NCBI GenBank assembly: GCA_902826945.1
Contig: CADEGS010000026.1
Location: forward strand, 1 to 30,957
Direction of reading: 5' to 3'
From: an uncultured bacterium
GTDB lineage: Bacteria > Planctomycetota > UBA1135 > GCA-002686595
DNA: 30,957 nt
Below, one piece after another: positions 1 to 18,138 of this stretch; position 1 is the first letter of the stretch, and every line of letters begins with the position of its first letter. Position numbers and translations under genes: made by a program. The notes under the pieces were generated by a model that ran no database searches, had not been told where the DNA came from, and saw only the letters and a program-made list of their open reading frames with translations.

Positions 1-1164
1 AGGGACCAGGCCAGGCTCACCAGGCAGAAGACGCCGAGCCCCTGCGCCGAGCGCGCGAGCGCGCGCCCCCAGGAGGGCGGCCCGGCGGCCAGCGCGGGGC
101 GCGGCCGGCGCGCCTCGACCAGCATCGTGACCAGCGCCAGCGCGCCGGCCGCGCCCCAGAAGAGGCCGTCGCTCGCCAGCGGCAGCGCGCCGTGCAGCCA
201 GAACCACTGGTAGCCGTGCAGGAGCCACGTGACGAGGAACGTCAGCGCCGTGGCCGAGGCCATCGCGAGGAGCGTCCCGCGCCCGCGCAGGCGCACGAAG
301 GCCGGGTAGTACACGACCTTCTTCATGAACTCGATCCAGTACACGTTGATCCGGCGCCAGCAGTCCGCGAAGCTCGTCGCGCAGAGCCAGCGGTGGTTCG
401 TCTCCGGCAGGCCGAACCCGAACAGGTGCAGGAGGCCGACGATCAGGTGGAACTGGCCCGAGATGCGCAGGTAGAGCAGGAAGCTCGACGCCGCGAAGCG
501 CGCGACACCGGCCAGGTCCTGCACCTCGGCGAAGGTCGGCGTCAGGTACAGGTAGACCAGCCGGTAGAGGAGCAGGTGCACGACGCCGCGCAGGATCCAC
601 GCCAGGCCGCGCTCGTGCAGCTCGTGCGCCGGGCGCTCGTAGTAGGTGCGCTGGAAGGTGCGCCAGTCCAGGACAGGGAAGAGCAGGAAGCAGGCGCTCG
701 GCAGCGGGAAGAAGTACGCGAGCCGCAGCCAGCCCGAGGCCGCGCCCGGCCGCGTCGCCTCGTCGTAGAGGTAGACGACCGTGCGGAACATCAAGAGCGC
801 CGCCACGACGGGCACGACGGCGCGCACCTCGTTGGAGGGGATCCGGCCGACGAGGCAGAGCGCGAGCGCGGCCGCGCACAGGACGAGCAGCGCCGCGCGC
901 CAGCGCAAGGCCAGCGGCAGGTGGCACACGCCGACCAGCGGGAGCGCGACAAGCGCGGGCGGGCAGCCAGGCGTGCACGCAGAACCCGCCCAGGGCGAGC
1001 CACGCCAGCGCTCCCAGCCCGAGCGAGCGCTCGAGCGCGAAGCCGTGGATCGCGAGCACGGCCAAGGCCAGCGTCGCGGCCGAGCGCGCGAAGCGCGCCG
1101 GGCGCAGGGCGGAGGGCCGCGCGTGGCGTTCGCTCGCGTCGGGGCTCTTCGTCGCCGCAGGCAT
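1..1164 (-). CDS. MBOAT-family membrane O-acyltransferase, 3' end off window, apparent frameshift
   Basis: Membrane-bound O-acyltransferases of the AlgI/DltB/PatA kind move an acyl group onto an extracytoplasmic sugar or polymer. Reading down the minus strand from the ATG at 1162-1164 gives a basic N-terminus and a hydrophobic helix (LALAVLAIHGF) ending in FCVHAWLPA. The family signature continues in another frame: HRWLCATSFADCWRRINVYW, then EFMKKVVYYPAF, then TWLLHGYQWFWLHG with the expected conserved His. The two parts join only if one base is removed near 957-966, in a G/C-rich run, so this is either a real frameshift or a sequencing error. The protein continues beyond the left edge, with about 385 codons visible. 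It is divergent from the methyltransferase, with 41 bp between starts. The family call is secure. The substrate is unknown, but an acyl carrier protein and an acyl-AMP ligase lie nearby, so an acyl-transfer role is plausible. Confidence 0.8.
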   Translation of the reverse strand, partial: MPAATKSPDASERHARPSALRPARFARSAATLALAVLAIHGFALERSLGLGALAWLALGGFCVHAWLPARACRAPAGRRVPPAAGLALARGAARPVRGRARALPRRPDPLQRGARRRARRGGALDVPHGRLPLRRGDAAGRGLGLAAARVLLPAAERLLPALPCPGLAHLPAHLLRAPGARAARARPGVDPARRRAPAPLPAGLPVPDADLRRGAGPGRCRALRGVELPALPAHLGPVPPDRRPPAPVRVRPAGDEPPLALRDELRGLLAPDQRVLDRVHEEGRVLPGLRAPARARDAPRDGLGHGADVPRHVAPARLPVVLAARRAAAGERRPLLGRGRRAGAGHDAGRGAPAAPRAGRRAALLGARARALGAGARRLLPGEPGLVP

Positions 1165-1205
1165 GCGCGTCGCGGACGAGCATACCGGGCAGGGCCGCGG
1201 ATGCC

Positions 1206-1991
1206 ATGAGGCCGCGCCACGGCGACTACACGGCGCTGGCGCGCGACTTCGCGCGCCACCGGCCGGGCTACGCGCCCGAGGTCGCGCGCCGCCTGCTCGA
1301 CGCGGTCGCGCGCGCGGACGGCGCGCCGCTCGCCCTGGCCGACGTCGGCGCGGGCACGGGCATCTGGACGCGCCAGCTCGCCGCCGCGGGCGGCGCGGTC
1401 GTCGCGGTCGAGCCGAACGACGCGATGCGCGCGGAGGGCGTGGCCGCCTGCGGCGGCCTCCCGATCGAGTGGCGCGCCGGCAGCGCCGAGGCGAGCGGCC
1501 TCGAGGCGGGCGCCTACGATCTGGTGACGGTGGCATCGGCGCTGCACTGGACGGACCTCGAGCGCGCGACCGCCGAGCTCGCGCGCGCGCTGCGCCCGGG
1601 CGGCCTGCTGGCCGCGCTGTGGAACACGCGCGCGCTCGAGGAGAGCCCGCTCGCGGCCGAGCTCGAGGCCGAGCTCGCGCGGCGCACGGGGCCGATCGAG
1701 CGCGTCTCCTCGGGGCGCTCGCGCTTCTGCGCGACGCTCTCCGAGCGCCTGGCCGCGAGCGGGCGCTTCGCCGCGGTGGAGCGCTTCGAGGCGCGGCACG
1801 TCGAGCGCATGACGCCCGAGCGCGCGATCGGCGTCTGGCGCTCGGCGAACGACGTGCGCGCCCAGGCGGACGAGCGCGCCTTCGAGGGCTTCCTGCGCTG
1901 GCTCGCGCAGCGCCTGGCCGGCCTGGCCTCGTTCGAGGTCGTCTACCGCACCCTGGTGTGGACGGCGCGCACGCCGGGGGGCGCGCGGTGA
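1206..1991 (+). CDS. class I SAM-dependent methyltransferase
   Basis: Small-molecule methyltransferase of 261 aa, probably cytoplasmic. Motif I is clear (DVGAGTGIWTRQL, residues about 46-58), followed by the acidic end of motif II (VAVEP, Glu69) and a post-II/III segment ASALHWTDLE leading to LARALRPGG, typical of Methyltransf_11/25 proteins. The ATG at 1206 is used because the nearby ATG at 1201 meets a stop after two codons, and translation farther upstream is low-complexity shadow of the MBOAT gene. It is the first gene of a plus-strand run and lies 91 bp before the glutamine-kinase-like fusion. In C. jejuni the phosphoramidate genes are accompanied by two methyltransferases (Cj1419/Cj1420) linked to O-methylation, so a similar job is an inference here. 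The acceptor cannot be read from sequence. Confidence 0.85.
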   Translation: MRPRHGDYTALARDFARHRPGYAPEVARRLLDAVARADGAPLALADVGAGTGIWTRQLAAAGGAVVAVEPNDAMRAEGVAACGGLPIEWRAGSAEASGLEAGAYDLVTVASALHWTDLERATAELARALRPGGLLAALWNTRALEESPLAAELEAELARRTGPIERVSSGRSRFCATLSERLAASGRFAAVERFEARHVERMTPERAIGVWRSANDVRAQADERAFEGFLRWLAQRLAGLASFEVVYRTLVWTARTPGGAR

Positions 1992-2082
1992 GCGGCGCGC
2001 GGCCGGCGGGTGGTGACCCGTGGCGCGCGCGGCGTCGCGAGCGCAGGCTGGAGCGGCGCGCTGGCGCGGAGCGGGCGCGACC

Positions 2083-5013
2083 ATGACCGACACGAAGGCA
2101 GACGAGGGCCCGCGCGCGCGCGCGCCGGACCACGCGGCGGACGAGGTCGCGCCGGGCACGCTCTACTGGATCACCGGCCTGGCGGGCGCGGGCAAGACGA
2201 CGCTCGCGCGCGGGCTCGCGGCGCGCCTGCGCGCGCGCGGCCGCGCGGTCGTGCGCCTCGACGGCGACGCGCTGCGCGCGGCGCTCTTCCCGGAGGCGGG
2301 CTACGCGGCCGAGGAGCGCCTGGCGCTCGCGTGCCGCTACGCCGCGCTGTGCGCGCTGCTCGTCGCGCAGGGGCAGGACGTCGTGTGCGCGACGGTGTCG
2401 CTCGTCCCGGAGGCCTGGAGCGAGCATCTCCGCGCCGTCGCGCGCACCCGCGAGGTGCTCGTGCGCGCGCCGCGCGCGCTGCTCGAGCGCCGGCGGCCGG
2501 ACCTCTACGGCGAGGGGGCCGGCGCGCGCGGACCGGTGGTCGGCCGCGAGCTCGCCGCGCGCGAGCCCGAGCGCCCCGACGTCGTGCTCGAGGACGACGG
2601 ACGCCGCGCGCCCGCCGCGCTCGCGGACGAGTGCCTCGCGCGCCTGGACGCGCTCGAGCGGGGCGCGCCCGCGCGCCGCCCGGTCGTCGCGCCGGGCACG
2701 AAGGCGGAGACGCTCGAGCGCCTGGCGCCGCTCGTGCGCGGCGCGCGCGTGCTGCCGCAGGAGCGCTTCACGCTGGCGCAGTGGCGCGACGACCCCGAGG
2801 CGATCCTGGCGCGCTTGGCGGCGCGCGGCTGGCTCGCGCTGCCGCTGATCGTGCGCAGCAGCGCGCTGGTCGAGGACGACCCGCGCGCCAGCCTGGCGGG
2901 GCGCTTCCGCTCCGCCCTCGACCGCCTGGGCGCGGCCGCGGTGCGGGAGGGGATCGACGAGGTCGCGCGCTCGCTGGGCGGCGAGCGGCCCGACGACCAG
3001 GTCTTCGTGCAGCCCTGCCTGCGCGGCGTGCGCGCGAGCGGCGTGCTCCTCACGCGCGACCCCGCGAACGGCAGCCGCTACGCGATCGTCGGGCTCGAGC
3101 GCTCGGGCGCGACCGACGGCGTGACCGGCGGCGTGACGGGGCAGGAGACCTGGTACCGCCACGCGAGCGCGGTCGAGCCGGCGCCCGCGGAGCTGGCGGG
3201 CGTGCTGGCGCTCGGCCGCGAGCTCGAGGCGCTGCTCGCGCCGGACGAGGACGCCGCGCTCGACGTCGAGTTCGCCGTCGCGGCGGACGGCGCGCTGCAC
3301 CTCCTGCAGGCGCGCGCCCTGGCCGTCGCGGCGCCGGCGCTCGGACCCGCGGCCGAGGCGCGCGCGCTCGAGCGCGTGCGCGCGCGCGTCGAGGCGCTGG
3401 CGCGCCCGCACCCCTACCTGCTCGGCGCGCGCGCCGTCTTCGGCGCCATGCCCGACTGGAACCCGGCCGAGGTGATCGGCGTGCGGCCCGCGCCGCTCGC
3501 CTTCTCGCTCTACCGCGAGCTCGTCACCGACGGCATCTGGGCCTACCAGCGCAGCAACTACGGCTACCGCAACCTGCGCAGCTTCCCGCTGGTCGTGTCG
3601 CTCGGCGGCCTGCCGTACGTGGACGTGCGCGTCAGCTTCAACTCGTTCGTGCCGGCCGACCTGGAGCCCGCGCTCGGCGCGCGGCTGGTCGAGCACTACC
3701 TCGAGCGCTTGCTGGCCTCGCCGCGCGACCACGACCGGGTCGAGTTCGCGATCGTGCACTCGTGCACGGCGCTCGACACCGACCGGCGCCTGGAAGCGCT
3801 GGGCGCGCACGGCTTCGGGCCGCAAGAGCGCGAGCGCCTGGCCGCCAGCCTGCGCGCGCTGACGAACGCCATCACGCGCCCCGGGGACGGCCTCTTCCTG
3901 CGCGACGTGGCGAAGATCCGCGAGCTGGAGCGCCGCCAGGAGGCCTTCGCGCGCGCGGCGCGCGGCCTCGAGCCGCTGGCGCGCGTCTACTGGCAGCTCG
4001 AGGACTGCAAGCGCTACGGGACGCTGCCCTTCGCCGGCATCGCGCGCGCGGCCTTCGTCGCGGTGCAGATGCTCGACTCGCTGGTCGCGACGGGCGTGCT
4101 CTCGCGCGAGGAGCGCGAGGCCTTCCTGCGCTCGCTCGCGAGCGTGCGCGCGGCGATGCAGACGGACCTCGCGCGGCTCCCGCGCGCGGCCTTCCTGCGC
4201 CGCTACGGGCACCTGCGGCCGGGCACCTACGACGTGACCTCGCCGCGCTACGACCGCGCGCCGGAGGCGTACTTCGACTTCGAGGCGCCGCCCGCGGACG
4301 CGCCGCCCGGAGCCGCGCCGGCGCTCTCGCGCGCGCAGGCCGCCGCCCTCGACCGGCTGCTCGAGCGCCAGGGGCTCGCGCTCGACCACGCGGCGCTCCT
4401 GGCCTTCGTGCGCGCCGCGATCGAGGCGCGCGAGGAGGCCAAGTTCGTCTTCACGCGCAGCCTGAGCGACGCGCTCGAGGAGCTCGCGGCCTGGGCCGAG
4501 TCGCTGGGGGTCGCGCGCGAGGACCTGGCCTTCGCCGACGCCGGCCTCGTGCGCCGGCTGGTCGGCGGCAGCGAGGACGCGCGCGAGCGCCTGCTCGCCT
4601 CGGTCGCCGAGGGCCGCGCGGCCTTCGCCGAGACGCGCCAGATCACGCTGCCGCCGCTCGTGCGCTCGCCCGAGGACGTGCGCGCCTTCTGCCTGCCGCC
4701 GTGCGAGCCGAGCTTCGTCACGCTGAAGAGCGCGGCGGGGCCGGTCGTGGCCGGCGACGCGCGCGCGAGCGCGCTGCGCGGCGCGATCGTGCTCCTCGCC
4801 AGCGCCGATCCGGGGCACGACTGGATCTTCACGCACGGCGTGGCCGGCCTGGTCACGGCCTACGGCGGCTACAACTCGCACATGGCGATCCGCGCGGGCG
4901 AGCTCGGCGTGCCGGCCGTGATCGGCGCGGGCGAGGCGCTGTTCCGTCGCTGGGGCGCCGCGCGCCGGTTGCGCATCGATTGCCTGGGCCGGCGCGTCGA
5001 GGTGCTGGCGTGA
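2083..5013 (+). CDS. fusion: CDP-amidate (APS-kinase-like) kinase + L-glutamine kinase (PEP-synthase-like)
   Basis: A 976-aa two-enzyme protein. Residues 1-190 are an APS-kinase fold: P-loop GLAGAGKTT (32-40), LDGDALR (59-65), and VCATVSLVPEAW where true APS kinases carry an ITAFISP-like strand. This resembles Cj1415, which phosphorylates the 3'-OH of cytidine diphosphoramidate. After a short linker (about 190-205) comes a PEP-synthase/PPDK-type ATP-grasp domain (LIVRSSALVEDDP, 255-267) and a C-terminal swivelling domain with GGYNSHMAIRAGELGVPAVIG. Its His933 is the expected phosphorylated His. The roughly 775-residue second part matches Cj1418, the L-glutamine kinase that makes amide-phosphorylated glutamine from ATP. 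The ATG at 2083 has GGAG 11 bases upstream and begins the conserved fold about 25 residues later. The stop overlaps the GTG of the next gene (GTGA). Domain calls are strong; the substrates are inferred from gene content. Alternatives are a PEP synthase or rifampin phosphotransferase relative, but no PEP-synthase C-terminal TIM barrel is present. Confidence 0.82.
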   Translation: MTDTKADEGPRARAPDHAADEVAPGTLYWITGLAGAGKTTLARGLAARLRARGRAVVRLDGDALRAALFPEAGYAAEERLALACRYAALCALLVAQGQDVVCATVSLVPEAWSEHLRAVARTREVLVRAPRALLERRRPDLYGEGAGARGPVVGRELAAREPERPDVVLEDDGRRAPAALADECLARLDALERGAPARRPVVAPGTKAETLERLAPLVRGARVLPQERFTLAQWRDDPEAILARLAARGWLALPLIVRSSALVEDDPRASLAGRFRSALDRLGAAAVREGIDEVARSLGGERPDDQVFVQPCLRGVRASGVLLTRDPANGSRYAIVGLERSGATDGVTGGVTGQETWYRHASAVEPAPAELAGVLALGRELEALLAPDEDAALDVEFAVAADGALHLLQARALAVAAPALGPAAEARALERVRARVEALARPHPYLLGARAVFGAMPDWNPAEVIGVRPAPLAFSLYRELVTDGIWAYQRSNYGYRNLRSFPLVVSLGGLPYVDVRVSFNSFVPADLEPALGARLVEHYLERLLASPRDHDRVEFAIVHSCTALDTDRRLEALGAHGFGPQERERLAASLRALTNAITRPGDGLFLRDVAKIRELERRQEAFARAARGLEPLARVYWQLEDCKRYGTLPFAGIARAAFVAVQMLDSLVATGVLSREEREAFLRSLASVRAAMQTDLARLPRAAFLRRYGHLRPGTYDVTSPRYDRAPEAYFDFEAPPADAPPGAAPALSRAQAAALDRLLERQGLALDHAALLAFVRAAIEAREEAKFVFTRSLSDALEELAAWAESLGVAREDLAFADAGLVRRLVGGSEDARERLLASVAEGRAAFAETRQITLPPLVRSPEDVRAFCLPPCEPSFVTLKSAAGPVVAGDARASALRGAIVLLASADPGHDWIFTHGVAGLVTAYGGYNSHMAIRAGELGVPAVIGAGEALFRRWGAARRLRIDCLGRRVEVLA

Positions 5014-5633
5014 AGCCGGTGCTCGTCACGCAGCGCGTCGTCTGCGAGGCGGGCGAGCGGCGCGACGCGCTCGAGCAGTCCTGGCACGCGCTGCTGGCGC
5101 GCGCCGGGCTGCGCGCGCTGCTCGTGCCGAACTGCCTGGCGGCGGCCGAGGAGCTGTGGGAGGGAGCGCCGGCCGCCGGCCTGCTGCTGACGGGCGGCAA
5201 CGACCTGGCCGCGCTCGGCGGCGACGCGCCCGAGCGCGACCGCGTCGAGGCGGCGGCGCTCGAGCGCGCGCTCGCGCGCGGCCTGCCGGTGCTCGGCGTG
5301 TGCCGCGGCATGCAGCTCCTGCTCGAGCGCCACGGCGCCGCGCACGAGCGCGTCGAGGGCCACGTGGCCGCGCGCCAGGAGATCCTGGTCGCGGGCGCGC
5401 CCGCGCTCGTGAACAGCTTCCACCGCTGGGGCGCGCGCGACGTCGGGCCGGAGCTCGAGGTCTGGGCGCGCGCGCGCGACGGCGTGGTCAAGGCCGTGCG
5501 CCACCGCGCGCGGCCCCTGGTCGGGATCATGTGGCACCCCGAGCGGCTGGAGCCGTTCCGCGCGGACGACGTGGCGCTCCTGCGCGCGCTCTTCGGCGGC
5601 GCGCCCGCGGAGGAGCGCGCGTGCGCGGGCTGA
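5010..5633 (+). CDS. class I glutamine amidotransferase-type hydrolase (peptidase C26), likely gamma-glutamyl-CDP-amidate hydrolase
   Basis: A 207-aa protein with a complete catalytic triad: nucleophile Cys98 in LGVCRGMQ, then His176 and Glu178 in MWHPE, plus VNSFHRWG (134-141) as in gamma-glutamyl hydrolases. The TGGND loop (61-65) is the usual oxyanion/GG element. The start is GTG at 5010, overlapping the preceding stop by 4 bp. This gives MKPVLVTQRV, the normal first beta-strand of the family, so there is no room for an upstream extension. In C. jejuni the equivalent protein (Cj1417, similar length) cleaves glutamate from CDP-L-glutamine to leave cytidine diphosphoramidate. That assignment rests on the neighbours. 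Taken alone it could hydrolyse another gamma-glutamyl amide such as gamma-glutamyl-GABA or gamma-glutamyl-putrescine. It is translationally coupled on both sides. Confidence 0.85.
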   Translation: MKPVLVTQRVVCEAGERRDALEQSWHALLARAGLRALLVPNCLAAAEELWEGAPAAGLLLTGGNDLAALGGDAPERDRVEAAALERALARGLPVLGVCRGMQLLLERHGAAHERVEGHVAARQEILVAGAPALVNSFHRWGARDVGPELEVWARARDGVVKAVRHRARPLVGIMWHPERLEPFRADDVALLRALFGGAPAEERACAG

Positions 5634-6355
5634 TCCTCGCGGCCGGCCGCGGGCGGCGCATGGGCGCCGCGACGGACCGGCGGCCGAAGGCGTTGCTCTC
5701 GGTCGGCGGGCGCACGCTGCTCGCCTGGCAGCGCGCCGCCTTCGCGCAGGCGGGCGTGCGCGAGGTCGCGCTCGTGCGCGGCTACCGCGGCGCGCAGATC
5801 GCCTTCGACGGGCCGTCGTTCGAGAACGAGCGCTGGGCCGAGAGCGGCATCGCCGCCTCGCTGGCGGCGGCCGAGGCCTGGCTCGCCGCCGGCCCGACGG
5901 TCGTCTCGTACGCGGACCTGGTCTACCCCGCGCAGGCGGTGCGCGCGATCGCGGCGGCGCCGGGCGAGATCGCCGTGCTCCACGACCCGGCCTGGCTCGC
6001 GCTCTGGCGGCGGCGCTTCGACGACCCGCTCGAGGACGCCGAGCGCTTCCGCGCCGACGCGCAGGGCCGCGTGCTCGCGATCGGCGGGCGGCCCGACGCG
6101 CTGGCCGAGGTCGAGGGGCAGTACATGGGCCTCTTCCGGCTGACGCCGCGCGGCGCCGAGCGGTTGCTCGCGCGCTGGCGCGCGCTCGACGCGGCGGCGC
6201 GCGAGCGCGCGGACGTGACCGGGCTCCTGGCGCTGCTCGTCGCCGAGGGCGAGGAGGTGCGCGCGGTCGCGCACGCGGGCTGGTGGTGCGAGATCGACCG
6301 CGCGCGCGACCTCCGCGTGGCGGAGGAGATCGTGCGCGAGGCGGGCGCGCCGTGA
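5621..6355 (+). CDS. nucleotidyltransferase, likely CTP:phosphoglutamine cytidylyltransferase
   Basis: A 244-aa GT-A-fold NTP transferase. The N-terminal signature GLILAAGRGRRMG with a Lys in RRPKALLSVGG (Lys23) is diagnostic. Metal ligands are expected at Asp99 (VSYADL) and Asp226 (WWCEIDRARDL). The motif NERWAESGIAASL (69-81) sits where LicC-type cytidylyltransferases hold the acceptor. The start is GTG at 5621, inside the last 13 bases of the hydrolase gene; it places the conserved first strand (RGLILAAG) at the very N-terminus. Cj1416 of C. jejuni, in the same gene set, couples CTP to glutamine phosphate giving CDP-L-glutamine. The same reaction is inferred here. A phosphocholine or sugar-phosphate nucleotidyltransferase would look similar without the context. 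Its stop overlaps the next GTG by 4 bp. Confidence 0.85.
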   Translation: MRGLILAAGRGRRMGAATDRRPKALLSVGGRTLLAWQRAAFAQAGVREVALVRGYRGAQIAFDGPSFENERWAESGIAASLAAAEAWLAAGPTVVSYADLVYPAQAVRAIAAAPGEIAVLHDPAWLALWRRRFDDPLEDAERFRADAQGRVLAIGGRPDALAEVEGQYMGLFRLTPRGAERLLARWRALDAAARERADVTGLLALLVAEGEEVRAVAHAGWWCEIDRARDLRVAEEIVREAGAP

Positions 6356-7218
6356 ACCCGGCGAACCGCGCGCGGCTCGTGGCGGGGGACGTGCTGCTCG
6401 CCGCGCACCCGGGCTCGGGCGGGACCTGGATCGCCGCCCTGCTCGTGCACCTGGGCGTCTTCTACGCCGCGGGCGACGAGGAGCTCCTGGCCGAGGGCGG
6501 CGCGCAGCGCACGGAGGGCCGGCTGGACGCCGCGCCGCGCCTGCCCGGACCCGCGCGCGGCGCGGCGGCGCCCCCGGAGCACGCCGGCCTCGCCGCGCAG
6601 CGCGAGCAGGTGCCCGTGCTGCGCGACCGCGCGCGGGCGACGGCGGCCTTCCGCGAGCCGCTGCGGGTCGTGCAGACCGGCGCGGCGGCGCTCGGCTGGA
6701 GCCCGCCGCAGCGCGTCGTGCTGCTCGTGCGCGACGGCCGCGACGCGCTGCTCTCGCTCTACCACGCGCTGCGCGGCTTCGGCGGCCTCGACGTGCCGCT
6801 GGCCGAGTTCCTCGGCGGCCGCGCGGGCGCCTGGCTGCCGCCGGCCCGGAGCTGGGCGGTGGCGGTCTCGAGCTGGACGGCGGCCATCCCCGCCGAGCGG
6901 CTGCACGTGCTGCGCTTCGAGTCCTGCCGCGAGCGGCCGCAGGCGGAGCTGCGCGCGCTGCTCGGCTTCCTGGGCGTGGCGCGCGAGGACGCGGCGCTCG
7001 AGCGCGCGATCGAGGCCGCCTCCTACCGCAGCATGCGCGCCGAGGAGGAGCGCGAGCTCGCGGCCCGCGGCGCCGCGCAGGGACCGCGCGTGATGCGCCG
7101 CGGGCAGGTCGGCGAGTGGCGCGCGCTCTACACCGAGGCGATGCTCGCGACCTTCCGCGGCCTGCCGCGGCGCGTGCTCGAGCGCTTCGGCTACGAGGTC
7201 GGGACGGTGCCCCCCTGA
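6352..7218 (+). CDS. sulfotransferase-fold protein, candidate phosphoramidate transferase
   Basis: A 288-aa P-loop sulfotransferase-family protein. The 5'-phosphosulfate-binding loop is HPGSGGTW (19-26). The 3'-phosphate-binding segment is VVLLVRDGRDALLSLYH (122-138). The C-terminal loop RRGQVGEWR (249-257) corresponds to the RKGxxGDWK element. The GTG at 6352 overlaps the upstream stop (GTGA) and starts ten residues before the conserved beta-strand. In the classical family these elements hold PAPS. The pathway before this gene is predicted to make 3'-phospho-cytidine diphosphoramidate, which has the same 3'-phosphonucleotide handle, so this protein may transfer the phosphoramidyl group rather than sulfate. 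That is inference: no PAPS-making enzymes (CysD/CysN) are in view. The 3' end overlaps the convergent radical SAM gene by 28 bp. Confidence 0.82.
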   Translation: MNPANRARLVAGDVLLAAHPGSGGTWIAALLVHLGVFYAAGDEELLAEGGAQRTEGRLDAAPRLPGPARGAAAPPEHAGLAAQREQVPVLRDRARATAAFREPLRVVQTGAAALGWSPPQRVVLLVRDGRDALLSLYHALRGFGGLDVPLAEFLGGRAGAWLPPARSWAVAVSSWTAAIPAERLHVLRFESCRERPQAELRALLGFLGVAREDAALERAIEAASYRSMRAEEERELAARGAAQGPRVMRRGQVGEWRALYTEAMLATFRGLPRRVLERFGYEVGTVPP

Positions 7219-9155
7219 GCGATGGCCGCGACCGGCGCGCTGGTCGCGAGCGGCTCGATGCGCGCGAGCTCCTGCACGGCCAGCGCGCACATCCAGCGAC
7301 GCTCGTCCTCGGTGCGCGAGGGCAGCAGGAGGAGCTGACCGCGGCGGTGGTCGAGCGTCACCTCCACGGGACGCGGCGCGAGGTGCGCGGGGTCGAGCGC
7401 GCCCTCCGCGCGCAGGTGCTCGAGCGCGCGCGGCAGGTCGTAGGGCGCGCGCGCGCGCCAGGTGCGCGGCCGGCCGGGCAGGAGCTCCGCCTGCGCGAGG
7501 TCGGCGCCGAGCGCGAAGGGCGTCTGCAGGAACACGTAGGGCCGCGCCAGGAGGTCGTGCTCGAGCGCCGCGCGCACGAGCGGCCCGTGCGGCCCCGCGC
7601 TCCAGGCCGGCCGCGAGGCGACGAAGCGGACCAGCAGCCGGTCGAGCTCGCCGCGCAGCGTGTGCAACGCGGCCTCGGCCATCACGCCGTTGGCGTTCAT
7701 CTTGCCCATGTCCTCCAAGTGGTCGAGCTGCGCGTGCCAGAGCTCGGCCAGCGGGCCGTCGGCCGAGCGCTCCATCCAGCCCGCGAAGGCGGCCAGCGCG
7801 TCCCGGGTGCGTGCCACGCCCAGCGCGTCGAGCACGGCCAGCGTCGCGAACAGCCCGCGGCAGTTGTGCAGGAGCTGCGTCGCCAGCGAGAAGCGCAGGC
7901 CCTCGAGGTAGTCCTCGAAGGAGACCTGCGCGGTGCGCACGACGATGCGGCCGCCGCTCGCCGGGTCGGCCTCGGGCAGGGTCACGACGCCCAGCTCGGC
8001 CGTGCGCTCCTCGTAGCCGGTGTTGCCGAGCCACAGGAGCGGGTAGACGAGGAAGCTCTGCGCGCCGGCGCGGCAGAGCGCCTCGATCCCGTCCTGGAAC
8101 GACGCGAGCGTCTCGCCGGGCATCGGCCACAGGAGCTCGACGATCGAGGGGCGCCGCGCGGCGTTCAGCCGGCGCTGGATGGCGTGCGTGGCCGCGCGCG
8201 AGAGGCCCGTGCGCCGGGCGAGCGCGAGCGCGCGCTCGCTCGTGGACTGCACCGAGAACACGTGGCGCGTCATCAGGCCGGCGTCGCCGAGCACGCGCGA
8301 GACCAGCTCGACGCGCTCGGGGCGCACCTTCGAGCTGTTGAACACGATGCGGTCGGGCCGGCCGTGCGCGCGCCGCAGCGCCGCGATGTGCTCGGCCAGC
8401 TCGACGTCGCGCGGCAGCAGGCCGAAGTTCGCATCGCACAGGGAGAGCGTGCGCAACCCGCGCCGGGCGATCCAGGCCAGCTCCTCGCGCAGGCGCTCCA
8501 GGTCCTGCAGGTAGACCTTCTGGCCGACCGCGCCGCCCCAGGTGCAGAACTCGCAGGCGAAGGGGCAGCCGCGGTTCGTCTCGAACAGCGCCACCGAGGG
8601 CGGCGGCAGGTCGTCGAAGGCGCCGCTCAGCCAGGGCGAGACGAGCTCGGTCAGGTCCTGGACGCGCGGCGGCGCCTCGGTCGTGTGCCAGGCGCCGTCG
8701 CGCGCGAAGGTCAAGCCGCCGACGCGCCCCCAGTCGGGCCGCTCGTCCGCGAGCTCGAGCAAGAGCGCCCGGAAGGGACGCTCGCCCTCGCCGTTGCAGA
8801 CGGCGACGTCCTCCTGGTCGAGCGCGACGTGGCGCGGCGCCAGGTTCATCACCTCGACGCCGCCGAGCAGGTAGCGCGTGGTCGGCGGCAAGAGACCGCG
8901 CAGCGCCGGCAGCAGGCGGCGCACCAGCCCGGCGTTCCAGGTGTAGACGCTGAAGGCGACCAGGTCCGGCGCGCGCCGCACGAGCGCGCGCAGGACGCGC
9001 GAGGCCGGCGCGCGCACGGTGTCGCTCAGGAGGTCGATGCGCCACGCGCGGCGCACCTCGGGGTCGGCCAGCGCGTAGGCCTTCAGGTAGCCGCCGACGA
9101 GCGGCGTGGCGCCGTCGAGGCCGTCGAGGTGGACGATCGCGGCGGTCTTCTGCAT
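7191..9155 (-). CDS. B12-binding-domain radical SAM protein
   Basis: A 654-aa protein with an N-terminal cobalamin-binding-like region (about 1-150, with DLVAFSVYTWNAGLVRRLLP and LLGGVEVMNL as beta-alpha units). A radical SAM core follows, starting near residue 188 with FETNRGCPFACEFCTWGG. Its Cys197, Cys201 and Cys204 form the CxxxCxxC site for the [4Fe-4S] cluster. The remaining third of the protein matches nothing I recognise. Class B radical SAM enzymes of this layout methylate unreactive carbon or phosphinate centres or perform ring chemistry. The substrate cannot be deduced here. The ATG at 9153-9155 is chosen because MQKTAAIVHL begins the fold; translation farther upstream is low-complexity. 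It converges on the sulfotransferase-like gene with overlapping 3' ends and faces the ACP gene divergently, suggesting it belongs to the same biosynthetic block. Confidence 0.85.
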   Translation of the reverse strand: MQKTAAIVHLDGLDGATPLVGGYLKAYALADPEVRRAWRIDLLSDTVRAPASRVLRALVRRAPDLVAFSVYTWNAGLVRRLLPALRGLLPPTTRYLLGGVEVMNLAPRHVALDQEDVAVCNGEGERPFRALLLELADERPDWGRVGGLTFARDGAWHTTEAPPRVQDLTELVSPWLSGAFDDLPPPSVALFETNRGCPFACEFCTWGGAVGQKVYLQDLERLREELAWIARRGLRTLSLCDANFGLLPRDVELAEHIAALRRAHGRPDRIVFNSSKVRPERVELVSRVLGDAGLMTRHVFSVQSTSERALALARRTGLSRAATHAIQRRLNAARRPSIVELLWPMPGETLASFQDGIEALCRAGAQSFLVYPLLWLGNTGYEERTAELGVVTLPEADPASGGRIVVRTAQVSFEDYLEGLRFSLATQLLHNCRGLFATLAVLDALGVARTRDALAAFAGWMERSADGPLAELWHAQLDHLEDMGKMNANGVMAEAALHTLRGELDRLLVRFVASRPAWSAGPHGPLVRAALEHDLLARPYVFLQTPFALGADLAQAELLPGRPRTWRARAPYDLPRALEHLRAEGALDPAHLAPRPVEVTLDHRRGQLLLLPSRTEDERRWMCALAVQELARIEPLATSAPVAAIAQGGTVPTS

Positions 9156-9301
9156 GCGGCGCGCGGACGAGCGCGGGAGACGCGCGCCGGCGCGCTCCCA
9201 GCCTAGCGCACGCGGCGCTCGCGCGGGGCGCGGCGGCGCGCGAGCGAGCGCAAAATCCTCTTTCCGCGAACCGCTCCGCAGGGCACGCTCGACGGAACGG
9301 C

Positions 9302-9385
9302 ATGAGCCCCTCGCCCGACCCTGGCGCCGGCCGCGGCTCGCGGCCCGCGCCTCGCCGCCGCGCCCGCGCGCGGAGGGCTCGTTGA
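9302..9385 (+). other. possible leader micro-ORF before the acyl carrier protein
   Basis: An ATG at 9302 opens a 27-codon Arg/Pro-rich frame (begins MSPSPDPGAG) whose TGA (9383-9385) overlaps the probable TTG start of the acyl carrier protein as TTGA. This could couple translation of the weak TTG start. No conserved peptide is recognisable, and a frame this short is expected by chance in such GC-rich DNA. It lies inside the 226-bp region between the divergent radical SAM and ACP genes, which otherwise must hold their promoters. I see no clear -10/-35 pair there. Confidence 0.2.
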
Positions 9386-9693
9386 GCGCTCCCTCCCCGG
9401 CGGGGGCGCACGGGCCGTCCGCGAGCCGCGCGCCCGCGGAGGACGGCGTGGCGGCGGCGGTGCGCGAGGTGCTCCTGGCCGGCGCGCTGGCGGGCTCGGA
9501 CCCCGCCGCGCTGGCGGACGAGACGCCGCTCGTCAGCGCGGGCGTGCTCGACTCGGTGCGCACGGTGCAGCTCGTCGGCGACCTCGAGGACCGCTTCGGC
9601 GTCGCCTTCGAGGCGTACGAGATGAGCGTCGAGCACCTCGACACCGTGGCGGCGATCGCGGCCACGATCCGCGGCAAGCTGCATGGCCGGTAG
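9382..9693 (+). CDS. acyl carrier protein
   Basis: A 103-aa carrier protein. The last 80 residues are a four-helix ACP: GVLDSVRTVQLVGDLEDRFG, with Ser58 as the phosphopantetheine attachment site, then FEAYEMSVEHLDTVAAIAATI. The first 20 residues are Ala/Pro/Ser-rich and may be a linker. The start is uncertain. TTG at 9382 has GGAGGG four to five bases upstream and overlaps the stop of a 27-codon leader frame; no ATG occurs between it and the ACP fold. The 3' end overlaps the acyl-AMP ligase by 11 bp, so the ligase very probably loads this carrier. It would hold an activated acyl or aminoacyl group as a thioester for transfer, perhaps to the MBOAT protein at the left edge. Confidence 0.8.
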   Translation: MSAPSPAGAHGPSASRAPAEDGVAAAVREVLLAGALAGSDPAALADETPLVSAGVLDSVRTVQLVGDLEDRFGVAFEAYEMSVEHLDTVAAIAATIRGKLHGR

Positions 9694-11410
9694 GACCCCG
9701 CTGCTCGGAGCGCGCACGCTCCAGGAGGCGATCCTGGAGCAGCTCCAGGCCGACCCCGCGCATCCGGCGCTCGCCTTCGTGGACGAGCGCGGCGCCTTTC
9801 GCTGGCAGAGCCGCGCGGCGCTGCACGAGCACGCGCGCGCCGTCGCGGGCGCGCTGGCGCGCCTGGGGCTCGAGCGCGAGCGCGTGCTCGTCGCGGTCGT
9901 GGCCGAGCACCGCGAGGCCGCCGGCGCGGTGCTGGGCGCGCTCGCGCTCGGGGCGCGGCCGCTGCTCGTCGCCCCGCCGACGATCCAGGGCGTGCACTCG
10001 AGCCTGGGCGCGATCGTGCGCGACGTCGTGCGCCGCAGCGAGGCGGCGCTGGTGCTCCTGCCCGAGGAGATGGGGCGGACGGCCGACGAGCTCGAGGCGG
10101 CCTTCCCGCACCTGCGCGTCGCGCTCGGCCACGAGGGCTGGCTCGCGGGCGGCCCGCCGGCGGCGGCGATGCGCCGCGCGCCGGGGGACGTGGCGGCGCT
10201 GCAGCTCACCTCGGGCACGACGGGCTTCCCGCGCATCGCCGTGTGGCGCGAGGAGCGCGTGCTGGCCGCGCTCGAGGGCATGGCGCTCGCGATGGAGACG
10301 CGGCCGGGCGACGTCGCGCTCGACTGGACGCCGCTCTACCACGACATGGGGCTGGTGAACAACCTGCTGCACGCGCTCGTGCACGGCGTGCCGCTCGCGC
10401 TGCTGTCCCCGCGCGCCTTCGTGCGCCGGCCGGCGCTCTGGCTGCGGGCGCTCTCTGAGACCGGGGCGACGACGACCTGGTCGCCGAACTTCGGCTACGC
10501 GCTGGCCGCCGAGCGCGTGCGCGACGGCGAGCTCGAGGGCGTGCGCCTGGACGGGATGCGCGCCTTCTGGAACGCGGCCGAGCGCATCCACCGCGAGACC
10601 TGCGAGCGCTTCGTGCGCCGCTTCGCGCCGCTCGGCGTGCGGCCCGAGGCGTTGCGCGCGAACTTCGGCTGCGTCGAGACGATCGGCGGGGCGACCTTCG
10701 GCGCCGCGGGCCGCCCGATCGCGTTCGAGCGCCTCCTTCGCGGGGCGCTGCGCGAGGAGGGCGTCGCGCGAGCGGTCGCGGAGGACGCGCCCGAGGGGCT
10801 CGCGGTCGAGACGGTCGCGGGCTGCGGCCGCGCGCATCCGGGGCTCGAGCTCGTCGTGCGCGACGCCGCGGGTCGCGCGTGCCCCGACGGCGTCGTGGGC
10901 GACGTGTGCGTGCGCACGCGCGCGCGCTTCGAGGGCTACCTGGGCCAGCCGGACGAGACCGAGCGCGCGCTGCGCGGCGACCTGGTGCAGACCGGCGATC
11001 GCGGCTACCTGCGCGGCGGCGAGCTCTTCTGGACCGGGCGCGGCGGCGAGGAGATCAACCTGGCCGGCCGCAAGCTCGACCCGAGCGAGCTCGAGCCCGT
11101 GCTCTTCGCCGCGGCGGGCCTGCGCAAGGGCTCCTTCGCCGCCTTCGGACGCGAGGACCCCGCGCGCGGCACGGAGGAGCTGGTGCTCGTGGCGGAGGCC
11201 GAGCCGCAGGCCGACCTGGCCGCGACGGCGGCCGCGCTGCGGCGCGCGCTCGCGACCGGCCTCGGGCTGAGCGTGGACGAGCTCGCGCTCGTCGCGCGCG
11301 GCACGCTGACCAAGACCTCCAGCGGCAAGCGCCGCCACCGCCACTTCGCCGACCTCTACCTCGCGGGCCAACTGGCCGTGCTGCACGCGAGCCGCGCCGG
11401 ACGCCTCTGA
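9683..11410 (+). CDS. FAAL-like acyl-AMP ligase (AMP-binding enzyme)
   Basis: A 575-aa adenylate-forming enzyme. The core A3 motif is LTSGTTGFPR (175-184), PLYHDMGLV (217-225) is the A4-like motif characteristic of fatty acyl-AMP ligases, GDLVQTGDRGYL holds the ribose-binding Asp, and TKTSSGKRRH near 543-552 carries the catalytic Lys (Lys549). FAAL proteins activate an acid with ATP and pass it to an ACP instead of CoA, and here the ACP gene overlaps the start of this one by 11 bp. Length is typical for FAALs. The ATG at 9683 gives the normal short N-terminus. The substrate (fatty acid, amino acid or other) is not readable. It ends 13 bp from the stop of the convergent histidine kinase. Confidence 0.88.
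   Translation: MAGRTPLLGARTLQEAILEQLQADPAHPALAFVDERGAFRWQSRAALHEHARAVAGALARLGLERERVLVAVVAEHREAAGAVLGALALGARPLLVAPPTIQGVHSSLGAIVRDVVRRSEAALVLLPEEMGRTADELEAAFPHLRVALGHEGWLAGGPPAAAMRRAPGDVAALQLTSGTTGFPRIAVWREERVLAALEGMALAMETRPGDVALDWTPLYHDMGLVNNLLHALVHGVPLALLSPRAFVRRPALWLRALSETGATTTWSPNFGYALAAERVRDGELEGVRLDGMRAFWNAAERIHRETCERFVRRFAPLGVRPEALRANFGCVETIGGATFGAAGRPIAFERLLRGALREEGVARAVAEDAPEGLAVETVAGCGRAHPGLELVVRDAAGRACPDGVVGDVCVRTRARFEGYLGQPDETERALRGDLVQTGDRGYLRGGELFWTGRGGEEINLAGRKLDPSELEPVLFAAAGLRKGSFAAFGREDPARGTEELVLVAEAEPQADLAATAAALRRALATGLGLSVDELALVARGTLTKTSSGKRRHRHFADLYLAGQLAVLHASRAGRL

Positions 11411-11423: not shown

Positions 11424-11427
<4 letters not shown>
11407..11427. terminator. short dyad between convergent stop codons
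   Basis: CTGAGC and GCTCAG flank a GCGGCCGC core, and the two arms contain the TGA of the acyl-AMP ligase and the reverse TGA of the kinase. The stem is about 10 bp with one bulged base and has no T-tract. It could act as a weak bidirectional terminator, or it may simply reflect GC-rich symmetry. Confidence 0.3.
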
Positions 11428-12989
<1,562 letters not shown>

Positions 12990-13168
12990 CGAAGGAAGGG
13001 CTGGCGGGCGTCGGCGCCCGAAGAACGGCGGATTGTAGCAGCGTGGCCCCGGCCACCGGCCAGGCCTGCGGCGATGTGCCCCGGGTCGCTACGCATCCTG
13101 CCGGAGGGATCGGGCGCGGCCTCGATGCCAGGCTGCTCTTCGTCCGCGGCGCGCCGGCCGCGGCGAGC

Positions 13169-13849
13169 ATGATCTCGCAGCACGAAGCCGAGCCGAGCGA
13201 CGCCGAGCGGCCGCTCTACGCGTCGCGTCGCGAGGCCGGCCGGCTGCTCGGGGCGCGGGTCGCCGGGCGCGGCTTCGCGAGCCCCGTGGTCGTCGCGCTG
13301 CCGGGCAGCGGCGCGCTGCTCGCGTCGGAGGTCGCGCTCGCGCTGCGCGCGCCGCTGGAGGTCTTCGTGCCCTGCCGGAGCGAGCACGCGCCCGGCCTCG
13401 CGGGCTGCCTGTGCTCGCGGCTGCGTGCCACCCCTGCGCAGCGCGAGCTGGTCGAGGCGCTCGCGCTGGCGAGCGCCGAGCGCGGCGGCGCGGACCTGCG
13501 GCTCGAGCTCGCCGAGCTGCGGCGCCGCGAGCAGGCCTGCCGCGGCGGGCGCCCGCCGCTCGCGCTCTCCGGGCGCAGCGCGATCCTGGTCGACGAAGGG
13601 GCGGACGGAGCGGGCGCCCTGCGCGCCTGCACCGCGCGCCTGCGCGGGGAGGCGGCGCGGCGCGTCGTCCTGGCCCTGCCCGCGGCGGATGTCGCCGCCG
13701 TGGGGGAGCTGTCGGGAATGGCGGACGAGGTCGTGCCGCTCTTCGTGCTGCGCGCCTTGCCCGGCCGTCTGTGGGGCGACGAGCGCGCGGCCGCGAGCGA
13801 CGACGAGGTCGCCGCGCAGGTCGAGCGCTGCGCCAGGGCCGCCACGTAG
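13169..13849 (+). CDS. phosphoribosyltransferase-like protein with degenerate PRPP motif
   Basis: A 226-aa protein with the layout of the type I PRTase domain proteins often annotated 'phosphoribosyltransferase' (ComF/Rv0571c-like). The N-terminal part reads PLYASRREAGRLLGARV, then VVALPGSGALLASEVALAL, then a long alpha-helical insertion. ILVDEGADGAGALRA (139-153) stands where the 13-residue PRPP-binding motif (VDDGIATGAT type) should be. The second acidic residue is Glu and the GxxTGxT loop has become GADGAGAL, which is unusual and may weaken PRPP binding. The segment ADEVVPLFV near 186-193 is also family-like. The ATG at 13169 is preferred; in-frame sequence upstream is not conserved-looking. 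The true reaction is unknown. Confidence 0.65.
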   Translation: MISQHEAEPSDAERPLYASRREAGRLLGARVAGRGFASPVVVALPGSGALLASEVALALRAPLEVFVPCRSEHAPGLAGCLCSRLRATPAQRELVEALALASAERGGADLRLELAELRRREQACRGGRPPLALSGRSAILVDEGADGAGALRACTARLRGEAARRVVLALPAADVAAVGELSGMADEVVPLFVLRALPGRLWGDERAAASDDEVAAQVERCARAAT

Positions 13850-13903
13850 GAAGAGCCGCTCCCGCGCGGGGGCCGCCATCGGCGCGGGGCGCACGGCCGC
13901 GGC

Positions 13904-14512
13904 TCAGGGCTCCCAGCGCGGCCGCCGGCGCACGCGCCAGCGCCACAGCACCAGCCCCGCGCCGAGCATGCCGCCCAGGTGGGCGAAGTGCGCGACGCCC
14001 GAGCGCGTGCCCAGGACGCCGTGCGCGAGCTCGAGCAGCCCGAACAGGAGCACGAACGTGCGCGCGGGCAGCGGGATCGGCGGGAAGAGCAGCATCACGG
14101 AGCGCTCGGGGAAGAGCACCGCGAACGCGAGCAGGATCCCGAACACGCCGCCCGAGGCGCCGACGGTCGGCGTCACGCTCCCCGCGGCGCTGACGACGAG
14201 CACCTGCGCGAGCCCGGCCGTGACGATCGCCGCCGCGTAGAGCGCGAGGGTGCGCGCGCTCCCGAGCAGGCGCTCGACGTCGCGCCCGAACATGTGCAGC
14301 GCGAGCATGTTCAGCCCGAGGTGCGCCGCGCCCCCGTGCAGGAACGCGGAGGTCACGATCTGCCAGGCGTGGAACCCGACCACGCCGACGCCCGGCACGA
14401 GGTAGCGCCCGAGCGGCCACAGCGCGAACGTCCCGAGCAGCGAGTCCGCGGCCGCCGCCTGCGCGAGGAAGACGAGGACGTTGGCGGCGATCAGGAGCTG
14501 GGTGACGGGCAC
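13904..14512 (-). CDS. rhomboid-family intramembrane serine protease
   Basis: A 202-aa, six-helix membrane protease. The first cytoplasmic-side helix is ITQLLIAANVLVFL-like, then the conserved HGGAAHLGLNML (His59, His64, Asn68), the catalytic GASGGVFG with Ser120, and the second catalytic residue His178 in HFAHLGG. All residues needed for activity are present. The start is GTG at 14510-14512. It lies 79 bp downstream of the secretion operon on the same strand, so co-transcription is possible. Rhomboid relatives (rhombosortases) process proteins sent out by type II secretion in some bacteria, but nothing in this sequence marks it as that subgroup, and a generic rhomboid is the safer call. Confidence 0.88.
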   Translation of the reverse strand: MPVTQLLIAANVLVFLAQAAAADSLLGTFALWPLGRYLVPGVGVVGFHAWQIVTSAFLHGGAAHLGLNMLALHMFGRDVERLLGSARTLALYAAAIVTAGLAQVLVVSAAGSVTPTVGASGGVFGILLAFAVLFPERSVMLLFPPIPLPARTFVLLFGLLELAHGVLGTRSGVAHFAHLGGMLGAGLVLWRWRVRRRPRWEP

Positions 14513-14528
14513 GGGCGCGGAGGGACGA

Positions 14529-14540
14529 CGACCATGGTCG
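14529..14540. promoter_or_regulatory. perfect 12-bp palindrome upstream of the rhomboid gene
   Basis: CGACCATGGTCG is a perfect inverted repeat lying 17 bp before the rhomboid GTG start, in the 79-bp gap after the lipoprotein gene. Its position would suit an operator, but a single 12-bp palindrome may be chance. Confidence 0.2.
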
Positions 14541-14591
14541 CCGGGCGCGCCCCGCCGGTCCAGCGCGCGCGGCCCGCGCCGGGGTCGTCCG

Positions 14592-17608: not shown

Positions 17609-18138
17609 CGGATGACGAGGTACTGGCCGAGCGAGCCGACCTCGACCACGACGCCGTCGCGGCCGACGTGCTCGACGCGCAGCACGATCGGCAGGTCGGA
17701 GCGCAGCACGCCGCCCGACGCGGAGACCGAGCGCGCGCGCGCGCCGTCCTCGCTCGGCGGCGCCGCCGCGGCCGGCGCGCGCCGCGCGCCGCGCAGCGTG
17801 AACGAGAGCCGCTCGCCCTCGCGCGTCGTGTACGTGCCGACGCCCTCGATCTCGACCAGCGCGGCGGGGCGCTCGGCGCCGCGCATCTGCACCAGGCCGC
17901 GCAGCCGCATCGGCGGCAGGCCGGGCCGCTCCTCGAGCGGCTGGAAGTCGTCGGGCTGCGCCGGCGCGCGCCCGAGCAGCTCGAGCAGCGCCGGGTCGGC
18001 GGCGAACGGGTCGCGCGCGGCGGGCTCCGCGGGGGCGGCGGGCTCGGGCTGCGGCGCGGGGGGGGCGTCTTGTCCGGGCGCGGCGGCCCGCAGCAGACCC
18101 AGCAGGAGGACCAGGGGCGTGGGATGGATCTGGAGCAT
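17605..18138 (-). CDS. PilP/GspC-like inner-membrane or periplasmic linker protein
   Basis: A 177-aa protein starting with a hydrophobic segment (PLVLLLGLLRAAAPG), followed by a Pro/Ala/Glu-rich linker (22-45). A small C-terminal beta-domain follows: PPMRLRGLVQMRGAERPAAL, then VEIEGVGTYTTREGERL and VVVEVGSLGQYLVIR. This 'RLRG...ALVEI.G..Y.VREGE' layout is what PilP and the HR domain of GspC show when docking on the secretin. The ATG at 18136-18138 lies 2 bp after the GspF stop, and the stop overlaps the gspD start. The assignment is by pattern and position, not by a strong motif. Confidence 0.65.
   Translation of the reverse strand: MLQIHPTPLVLLLGLLRAAAPGQDAPPAPQPEPAAPAEPAARDPFAADPALLELLGRAPAQPDDFQPLEERPGLPPMRLRGLVQMRGAERPAALVEIEGVGTYTTREGERLSFTLRGARRAPAAAAPPSEDGARARSVSASGGVLRSDLPIVLRVEHVGRDGVVVEVGSLGQYLVIR

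What the first reader, a model, noticed from the sequence alone, without database searches (positions are those of the whole stretch)
2083..7218. Probable phosphoramidate (P-N bond) nucleotide pathway outside Campylobacter
Four overlapping genes encode an APS-kinase-like domain, a PEP-synthase-like kinase with swivelling His, a C26-type glutamine hydrolase and a cytidylyltransferase-like protein. This is the same set as C. jejuni Cj1415-Cj1418, known to make 3'-phospho-cytidine diphosphoramidate from glutamine, ATP and CTP. All catalytic residues expected from the families are present (P-loop, His933, Cys98/His176/Glu178, Asp99/Asp226). The product would be an activated phosphoramidate for modifying a glycan or a small molecule in a very different, GC-rich bacterium.
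Basis: partly seen in the sequence, partly recalled or inferred. Interest (0 to 1): 0.92.

Follow-up and report, generated by a model that had tools for sequence, protein, structure and literature searches.

The report
Widespread phosphoramidate cassette with sulfotransferase-like transferase
A planctomycete-like bacterium carries a gene set for making an activated phosphorus-nitrogen group, chemistry so far tied to the capsule of Campylobacter; close versions sit in many unrelated bacteria, often next to a sulfotransferase-like gene that may be the missing enzyme that attaches the group.

Summary
The genes are real and the reading holds at family level. Gene A fuses an APS-kinase-like domain to a glutamine-kinase-family protein (NF004508: 815 bits, cut-off 501); a C26 hydrolase and a cytidylyltransferase-like protein follow. 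Of 81 loci (best 80 plus the window), 59 hold all five cassette genes. New here: sulfotransferase-like genes accompany the cassette in 34 of 81 loci, in 32 within two genes; some loci add a CysQ-like 3'-phosphatase; 8 of 31 such genomes show no APS kinase over the family cut-off, so ordinary PAPS seems unavailable there. I propose that the cassette makes a cytidine analogue of PAPS, 3'-phospho-CDP-(methyl)amidate, and that sulfotransferase-fold enzymes transfer the phosphoramidate. Here the cassette sits between genes of an MBOAT/ACP/acyl-AMP-ligase module. No activity was tested and no Campylobacter sequence was compared. New variant of a known kind; interest 0.75.

The parts
3..929 (-). MBOAT-type membrane acyltransferase, N-terminal part; the gene runs off the window start (full relatives of 819-855 aa carry a C-terminal region that looks like an SGNH hydrolase by eye)
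   Evidence: 51% identity to the L002 relative in alignment A5; best tblastn segments 64% (L015) and 58% (L002); weak DltB match, E 0.0035; no Pfam match; next to ACP and acyl-AMP ligase, without the cassette, in L093
1206..1991 (+). MT: class I SAM-dependent methyltransferase; proposed O-methylation of the phosphoramidate
   Evidence: Methyltransf_11 6.3e-17; MT found within six genes of the kinase in 65 of 81 loci
2083..5013 (+). A: APS-kinase-like domain (about residues 25-190) fused to a glutamine-kinase-family protein (about 205-975); His933 is the swivelling phospho-His
   Evidence: PF01583 1.1e-16, PPDK_N, PEP-utilizers; NF004508 815 bits vs cut-off 501; His933 in 15 of 15 rows
5010..5633 (+). 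B: C26-type amidohydrolase, proposed gamma-glutamyl-CDP-amidate hydrolase
   Evidence: PF07722 4.4e-22; best NCBIfam model NF045546, 99 bits vs cut-off 250; Cys98/His176/Glu178 in 77 of 77
5621..6355 (+). C: nucleotidyltransferase, proposed CTP:phosphoglutamine cytidylyltransferase
   Evidence: PF12804 1.5e-17; Asp99 and Asp226 in 75 of 75; present in 79 of 81 loci
6352..7218 (+). D: sulfotransferase-fold protein, proposed phosphoramidate transferase
7191..9155 (-). B12-binding radical SAM protein, converging on D; possible further tailoring step
   Evidence: PF04055 7.2e-12, PF02310 2.1e-8; of 154 genomes, 465-855 bits in the three cassette genomes, 144-150 bits in two others
9448..9693 (+). 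acyl carrier protein
   Evidence: PP-binding 1.5e-6; ornithine-lipid ACP model 78 bits vs cut-off 130; gene
9683..11410 (+). fatty acyl-AMP ligase-like enzyme
   Evidence: AMP-binding 8.9e-38; best NCBIfam model fatty acyl-AMP ligase, 252 bits vs cut-off 600; relatives in L002 and L015

Best explanation
The operon 1206-7218 makes and uses an activated phosphoramidate by a logic parallel to sulfation with PAPS. [quoted passage not shown] (2) C couples the product to CTP, giving CDP-L-glutamine. (3) B removes glutamate, leaving cytidine diphosphoramidate. (4) The APS-kinase-like half of A adds a 3'-phosphate. (5) MT O-methylates the phosphoramidate; at which stage is unknown. (6) D binds this 3'-phospho nucleotide as sulfotransferases bind PAPS and passes the (methyl)phosphoramidate to a hydroxyl acceptor, releasing 3'-phospho-CMP; in some relatives an operonic CysQ-like phosphatase would recycle that by-product. 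In this lineage the acceptor is probably made or acylated by the MBOAT/ACP/acyl-AMP-ligase module around the cassette. Steps 1-4 are inferred from homology to the Campylobacter pathway, 5 from frequent co-occurrence, 6 from fold, conserved nucleotide motifs, neighbourhood and genomes without APS kinase; the acceptor is a guess. My confidence by step: 1-4 together 0.85; 5, 0.65; 6, 0.6.
For: Kinase family over cut-off; hydrolase's best model named for this reaction. Catalytic residues conserved. All five genes in 59 of 81 loci; hydrolase follows the kinase on the same strand within two genes in 78 of 81. Sulfotransferase families lead the Pfam tally of operon neighbours: PF13469 in 16 and PF00685 in 12 of 118 scanned (overlapping). 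For 118 distal genes neither is among the 25 families shown of 200, whose lowest count is 2, so at most 2 each. By an iterated profile, 36 of 320 genes within two genes of the core against 2 of 674 farther off. D family: 26 proteins at E<=1e-8 among 7994 candidates scored from a 5.8-billion set; 24 of them (the window's own and two fragments included) at E<=4e-41, then a gap to 5.5e-12. D is in 3 of 154 genomes of the order at E<=1e-25, the same three as the kinase. D keeps residues aligned with the 3'-phosphate site of SULTs (R127, S135, R249, G251 in 25 of 25). Operonic CysQ over cut-off in 2 of 4 tested. In 8 of 31 genomes with cassette plus sulfotransferase-like neighbour no APS kinase passes the cut-off. 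In two of these, Paenibacillus kobensis (G523) and Dechloromonas SSD3 (G525), the cassette-linked protein is the genome's only PF13469 match.
Against: No activity, product or acceptor was shown, and no Campylobacter sequence was compared. Hydrolase score is below its model's cut-off. 47 of 81 loci show no sulfotransferase-like gene, 49 none within two genes (some contigs are short), so other transferases must act there; Glyphos_transf was in 8 of 118 neighbours. G002 and G003, of the window's own cluster type, have a true APS kinase elsewhere, so PAPS cannot be excluded for D itself. Several of the 8 genomes are MAGs that may be incomplete; G524 has no APS kinase over cut-off yet 12 PF13469 match rows, and G530, G533 and G514 have no PF13469 match at E<=1e-4, so the linked proteins there are divergent (L071 is below Pfam's cut-off and L080 unmatched) or of the other family (G514/L026: PF00685). 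In G525 the cassette's APS-kinase gene shows an in-frame stop. I saw no CysQ gene in the window's cluster. The near/far profile was seeded with near genes.
Confidence: 0.6

Rival explanations
1. D and its analogues are ordinary PAPS sulfotransferases: the same product is both sulfated and phosphoramidated, and the genes cluster because they act on one molecule.
For: Clear sulfotransferase fold and PAPS-binding motifs. True APS kinase elsewhere in 23 of 31 genomes, G002 and G003 among them.
Against: 8 of 31 genomes have no APS kinase over cut-off, only one sub-threshold match each, which by position is the cassette's copy. The D family has Gly in place of the Lys of the SULT nucleotide loop (HPGSG in all 25 rows) and Asn/Gly/Thr in place of the catalytic His in 24 of 25 (the roles of these residues are recalled). 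In the order, the 151 of 154 genomes without D at E<=1e-25 are also those without the kinase.
Confidence: 0.25
2. The cassette makes a different P-N nucleotide: the kinase acts on another amide or amine, or the nucleotidyltransferase uses another NTP, and the product enters a small-molecule natural product.
For: Substrates were not tested; hydrolase below cut-off; in this lineage ACP, acyl-AMP ligase and B12 radical SAM genes surround the cassette, as in natural-product clusters.
Against: The 119 listed relatives other than the window are 49-63% identical to the kinase, with long invariant stretches, and the hydrolase and nucleotidyltransferase are present in 79 of 81 loci each, which argues for one conserved substrate.
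Confidence: 0.12
3. Ordinary PEP synthase, APS kinase, gamma-glutamyl hydrolase and sugar-nucleotide enzymes that happen to be neighbours.
For: Pfam superfamily names alone.
Against: No PEP/pyruvate C-terminal domain; PEP-synthase and apsK models below cut-off while NF004508 is far above; set conserved in 59 of 81 loci.
Confidence: 0.02

Closest known systems
Campylobacter jejuni O-methyl phosphoramidate (MeOPN) pathway, Cj1415-Cj1418, with methyltransferases Cj1419/Cj1420 (recalled) and the transferases Cj1421/Cj1422
   Same: Same four enzyme families by model and by recollection, plus a methyltransferase. The glutamine kinase function of Cj1418 (PMC10971088) and 3'-phospho-cytidine diphosphoramidate as an intermediate (PMC6429109) are in the passages read.
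   Different: APS-kinase-like and glutamine kinase domains fused; sulfotransferase-fold protein in the operon; set between genes of an acyl-transfer module, not in a capsule locus; a GC-rich planctomycete-like source. Whether Cj1421/Cj1422 are related to D was not tested.
PAPS-dependent sulfation (APS kinase, sulfotransferase, CysQ)
   Same: Same three protein families and, as proposed, the same logic: 3'-phosphorylated nucleotide donor, transferase that reads the 3'-phosphate, 3'-phosphatase for the by-product.
   Different: Donor proposed to be a cytidine diphosphoramidate; D lacks the SULT Lys (25 of 25) and His (24 of 25); no ATP sulfurylase seen in the window's cassette.
D-alanylation-type acyl transfer (DltA ligase, DltC carrier, DltB MBOAT; recalled)
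   Same: An AMP ligase, a carrier protein and an MBOAT stand around the cassette, and stand together without it in L093.
   Different: Ligase resembles fatty acyl-AMP ligases; the MBOAT matches DltB only weakly and its full-length relatives carry an extra C-terminal region.

Membership tests
MeOPN nucleotide pathway (Cj1415-Cj1418 type) | Glutamine-kinase-family protein with swivelling His | tested here: met
   NF004508 815 vs cut-off 501 bits; His933 15 of 15 rows. That Cj1418 lies in this model is recalled.
MeOPN nucleotide pathway (Cj1415-Cj1418 type) | gamma-glutamyl-CDP-amidate hydrolase | tested here: inconclusive
   Best NCBIfam model is NF045546, but 99 bits vs cut-off 250; triad 77 of 77.
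MeOPN nucleotide pathway (Cj1415-Cj1418 type) | CTP:phosphoglutamine cytidylyltransferase | tested here: inconclusive
   NTP_transf_3 family; no specific model matched over cut-off; nucleotide not testable here.
MeOPN nucleotide pathway (Cj1415-Cj1418 type) | APS-kinase-like CDP-amidate kinase | tested here: inconclusive
   PF01583 1.1e-16; below the apsK cut-off, 64 vs 138.7 bits, and below NF004041, 102 vs 127; substrate unknown.
MeOPN nucleotide pathway (Cj1415-Cj1418 type) | Direct sequence relation to the Campylobacter proteins | not tested
   No Campylobacter sequence was reached (none named in the lists).
MeOPN nucleotide pathway (Cj1415-Cj1418 type) | Glutamine-, ATP- and CTP-dependent formation of CDP-amidate | not testable with these tools
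   Needs enzyme assay.
PAPS sulfotransferase (Sulfotransfer_1) | Fold and 3'-phosphate-binding motifs | tested here: met
PAPS sulfotransferase (Sulfotransfer_1) | Catalytic Lys of the 5' loop and catalytic His (roles recalled) | tested here: not met
   Gly at the Lys place in all 25 rows; His in 1 of 25, Asn 20, Gly 2, Thr 2. Tested by alignment only.
PEP synthase / pyruvate phosphate dikinase | C-terminal PEP/pyruvate-binding domain and over-cut-off score | tested here: not met
   Only PPDK_N and the mobile His domain matched; PEP-synthase models 22-47 bits vs cut-offs 598-1063 among the 25 of 27 families shown.
gamma-Glu-GABA hydrolase PuuD | Over-cut-off score of its model | tested here: not met
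   PRK11366 56.5 vs cut-off 266 bits.

The most novel reading that the evidence does not exclude
A second 'PAPS': many bacterial phyla make 3'-phospho-cytidine diphospho-(methyl)amidate as a general group-transfer donor, and a branch of the sulfotransferase fold has been retuned from sulfate to phosphoramidate transfer, with CysQ-like enzymes clearing the by-product. That would make phosphoramidylation a widespread biological decoration parallel to sulfation and would suggest what does the transfer step that is still open in Campylobacter.
Probability: 0.55. Interest if true: 0.88.

Novelty: new variant of a known kind. Interest (0 to 1): 0.75.

Why it matters
P-N bonds are rare in described biology. 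One review says the O-methyl phosphoramidate modification was so far identified only in Campylobacter (PMC6429109, passage) and another calls the glutamine kinase C. jejuni-specific (PMC9561416, passage). The sequence evidence says the gene set is spread over Acidobacteria, Planctomycetes, Proteobacteria, Firmicutes, Verrucomicrobia and others (record titles). A sulfotransferase-fold transferase would explain why the pathway bothers to add a 3'-phosphate, and would make the transfer step testable with purified proteins from harmless bacteria.

Tried and rejected
Phage or viral spread of the pathway: 0 relatives in viral contigs (15 pattern hits, none confirmed); one 30%-identity match in 50,697 phage records. 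Plasmids: 13 of 72,556 records, all under 60% identity. Finding Campylobacter transferases by a search with a 602-aa sulfotransferase-like protein of L045: 4 proteins, none named from Campylobacter. PDB relatives of the MBOAT by a three-sequence profile: none at E<=1. Promoter and terminator scan of 900-9600: none found, uninformative at 77% G+C. Window's own genome: not held. A fold search lists only what Foldseek ranked, so unlisted folds are not excluded.

Considered and rejected: ordinary PEP synthase/APS kinase/GABA hydrolase neighbours; ACP, ligase and MBOAT as strict parts of the phosphoramidate cassette, because they stand together without it in L093.

Rows dropped: 118 of 137 operon neighbours were passed to Pfam (19 left out: near-duplicate loci such as L036 and L040, very short or very long proteins, some second-copy Eubacterium genes; one left-out protein, L056:2808-5567, does carry a sulfotransferase domain). 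Distal control: 118 drawn at random from 325 genes of 150-600 aa at least four genes from the core; that list excluded the two distal genes that match the sulfotransferase profile. The gene calls in loci come from a simple script, not an annotation pipeline. Of 34 loci with a sulfotransferase-like gene, the 31 used leave out the window, L053 (18 bits only) and L054 (five genes away).
Full report
What is there. The window is 77% G+C. On the + strand, 1206-7218 holds a methyltransferase (MT) and four genes A-D; A to D overlap by 4-13 bases. A is an APS-kinase-like domain fused to a PEP-synthase-like kinase, B a C26 hydrolase, C a MobA-like nucleotidyltransferase, D a sulfotransferase homologue. 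On the - strand lie an MBOAT-like gene cut by the window start and a B12 radical SAM gene; downstream on the + strand an acyl carrier protein and an acyl-AMP ligase. The rest of the window looks like sensor kinases and a type II secretion system, by my reading of the translations.

Family tests. A scores 815 bits against the curated cut-off of 501 for NF004508, while the PEP-synthase models shown reach at most 47 bits against cut-offs of 598 or more. Its APS-kinase part scores 64 bits against 138.7 for apsK and 102 against 127 for NF004041. B's best model is gamma-glutamyl-CDP-amidate hydrolase, but under cut-off, 99 vs 250 (all). The link of NF004508 to Cj1418 is recalled; the function of Cj1418 as glutamine kinase is in a passage of PMC10971088. 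No Campylobacter sequence was available to align.

Distribution. A search of 5.8 billion proteins gave 1734 relatives at E<=1e-20 among the 7993 candidates scored; the best 120 listed include fused kinases named from Planctomycetota, Terriglobales and Bryobacteraceae, some called 'glutamine kinase' by JGI. Of these 80 plus the window: kinase 81, hydrolase 79, cytidylyltransferase 79, APS-kinase-like 75, methyltransferase 65, all five 59; fusion in 19. The commonest order is APSK-MT-GK-hydrolase-cytidylyltransferase, 30 loci; the hydrolase follows the kinase on the same strand within two genes in 78 of 81. Within Planctomycetes the kinase is patchy: 8 of 392 genomes drawn from the phylum, 3 of 154 of the order of G003.

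By-product and donor. Some operons carry an inositol-monophosphatase-family gene, 6 of 118 neighbours. Of four tested, two pass the CysQ (3'(2'),5'-bisphosphate nucleotidase) cut-off, 233.7 and 231.1 vs 228.8; two do not, 217 and 147. CysQ clears the 3'-phospho-nucleotide left by sulfation (recalled); the same need would arise here. Of 31 genomes with cassette and sulfotransferase-like neighbour, 23 have an APS kinase over cut-off and 8 do not: G001, G514, G519, G523, G524, G525, G530, G533. Of these 8, G523 and G525 have CysD, the other six do not, and none matches the other ATP sulfurylase family. In G523 (Paenibacillus kobensis) and G525 (Dechloromonas SSD3, a MAG titled complete genome) the single PF13469 match lies at the cassette by its coordinates. 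Against: G525's cassette APS-kinase gene shows an in-frame stop; G524 has 12 PF13469 match rows without APS kinase, which suggests missing sequence or PAPS-independent members, and G530, G533 and G514 have no PF13469 match at E<=1e-4, their linked proteins being divergent or, for G514, of PF00685 type; G002 and G003 have APS kinases.

Surroundings. MBOAT, MT, A-D, radical SAM, ACP and ligase keep the same order in L002 and L015 (in L015 the kinase domains are called as two genes), and L001 agrees as far as its contig reaches; best protein segments are 50-67% identical. In the order, high-scoring radical SAM relatives occur only in the three cassette genomes, with two others at 144-150 bits; the ligase occurs in 4 genomes at E<=1e-60 and the MBOAT of L015 in 9 at E<=1e-40. 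In G420 (L093) MBOAT, ACP and ligase lie side by side without the cassette; in G478 (L094) MBOAT and ligase do, no ACP match seen. So the cassette with D and the radical SAM gene sits between the divergent halves of a separable acyl-transfer module, gained here or lost there. This suggests, without proving, that the phosphoramidate decorates the product of that module.

What is in print. From the library only. 'Glutamine kinase' gives 18 papers, by their titles Campylobacter papers, reviews or unrelated. 'Glutamine kinase' with 'phosphoramidate' gives 10; with 'gene cluster' and 'adenylylsulfate kinase' none. 'MeOPN' with 'sulfotransferase' gives none; 'phosphoramidate', 'lipopolysaccharide' and 'sulfotransferase' none; 'phosphoramidate' with 'sulfotransferase' gives 9, of which I opened one, where both words stand only in the references. 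'Diphosphoramidate' gives 15, none with a title on this point. A broader MeOPN search found 50, of which 25 were listed. Passages read: PMC6429109 (the modification so far only in Campylobacter), PMC9561416 (kinase called C. jejuni-specific), PMC12409886 (2025: pathways for decoration with methyl phosphoramidate still to be elucidated), PMC3907429 (transferases Cj1421/Cj1422; non-methylated phosphoramidate cited for Xanthomonas campestris and Shewanella lipopolysaccharide). Two of the primary papers of 2017-2018 were looked up and not held, and most subscription papers and all preprints are missing, so earlier notice of the spread or of the fold cannot be excluded.

Verdict. The boldest new point is that the transferase is a sulfotransferase-fold enzyme using a cytidine analogue of PAPS.

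Noticed in passing
L035:8242-9921 and the neighbouring gene of like size in L031, L036, L040: In several Pseudomonas-type loci the cassette directly follows a flagellin-like gene (Flagellin_N in L035; clustered with the others), which hints at phosphoramidate on a flagellin glycan.
   Followed up: no
L056:2808-5567: In Paenibacillus kobensis the sulfotransferase-like domain is fused to an AMP-ligase, recalling the separate acyl-AMP ligase of the window cluster.
   Followed up: partly
L093:4860-9717: MBOAT, ACP and acyl-AMP ligase side by side without the cassette: a natural 'without' arrangement of the window's locus.
   Followed up: partly
plasmid hits H4-H13: Relatives of the kinase at 33-39% identity on plasmids of Cupriavidus taiwanensis, Agrobacterium vitis, Microvirga, Vibrio alfacsensis and others; possibly a sister pathway.
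   Followed up: no
MT837632.1 (phage collection), 1405-2988: One short unannotated 'Bacteriophage sp.' record encodes a 30%-identity relative of the kinase; could be mis-binned bacterial DNA.
   Followed up: no
L045:5604-9196: Two tandem 594- and 602-aa proteins with C-terminal sulfotransferase domains upstream of the kinase; their size and pairing recall Cj1421/Cj1422 (lengths recalled).
   Followed up: partly
window 11424-28887: PAS/histidine-kinase genes, a rhomboid-like gene and a type II secretion operon (GspD, GspF, GspE, pseudopilins) on the - strand, by my reading.
   Followed up: no
G525:C1:2883812-2884336: The cassette's APS-kinase-like gene in Dechloromonas SSD3 shows one in-frame TAG.
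   Followed up: no
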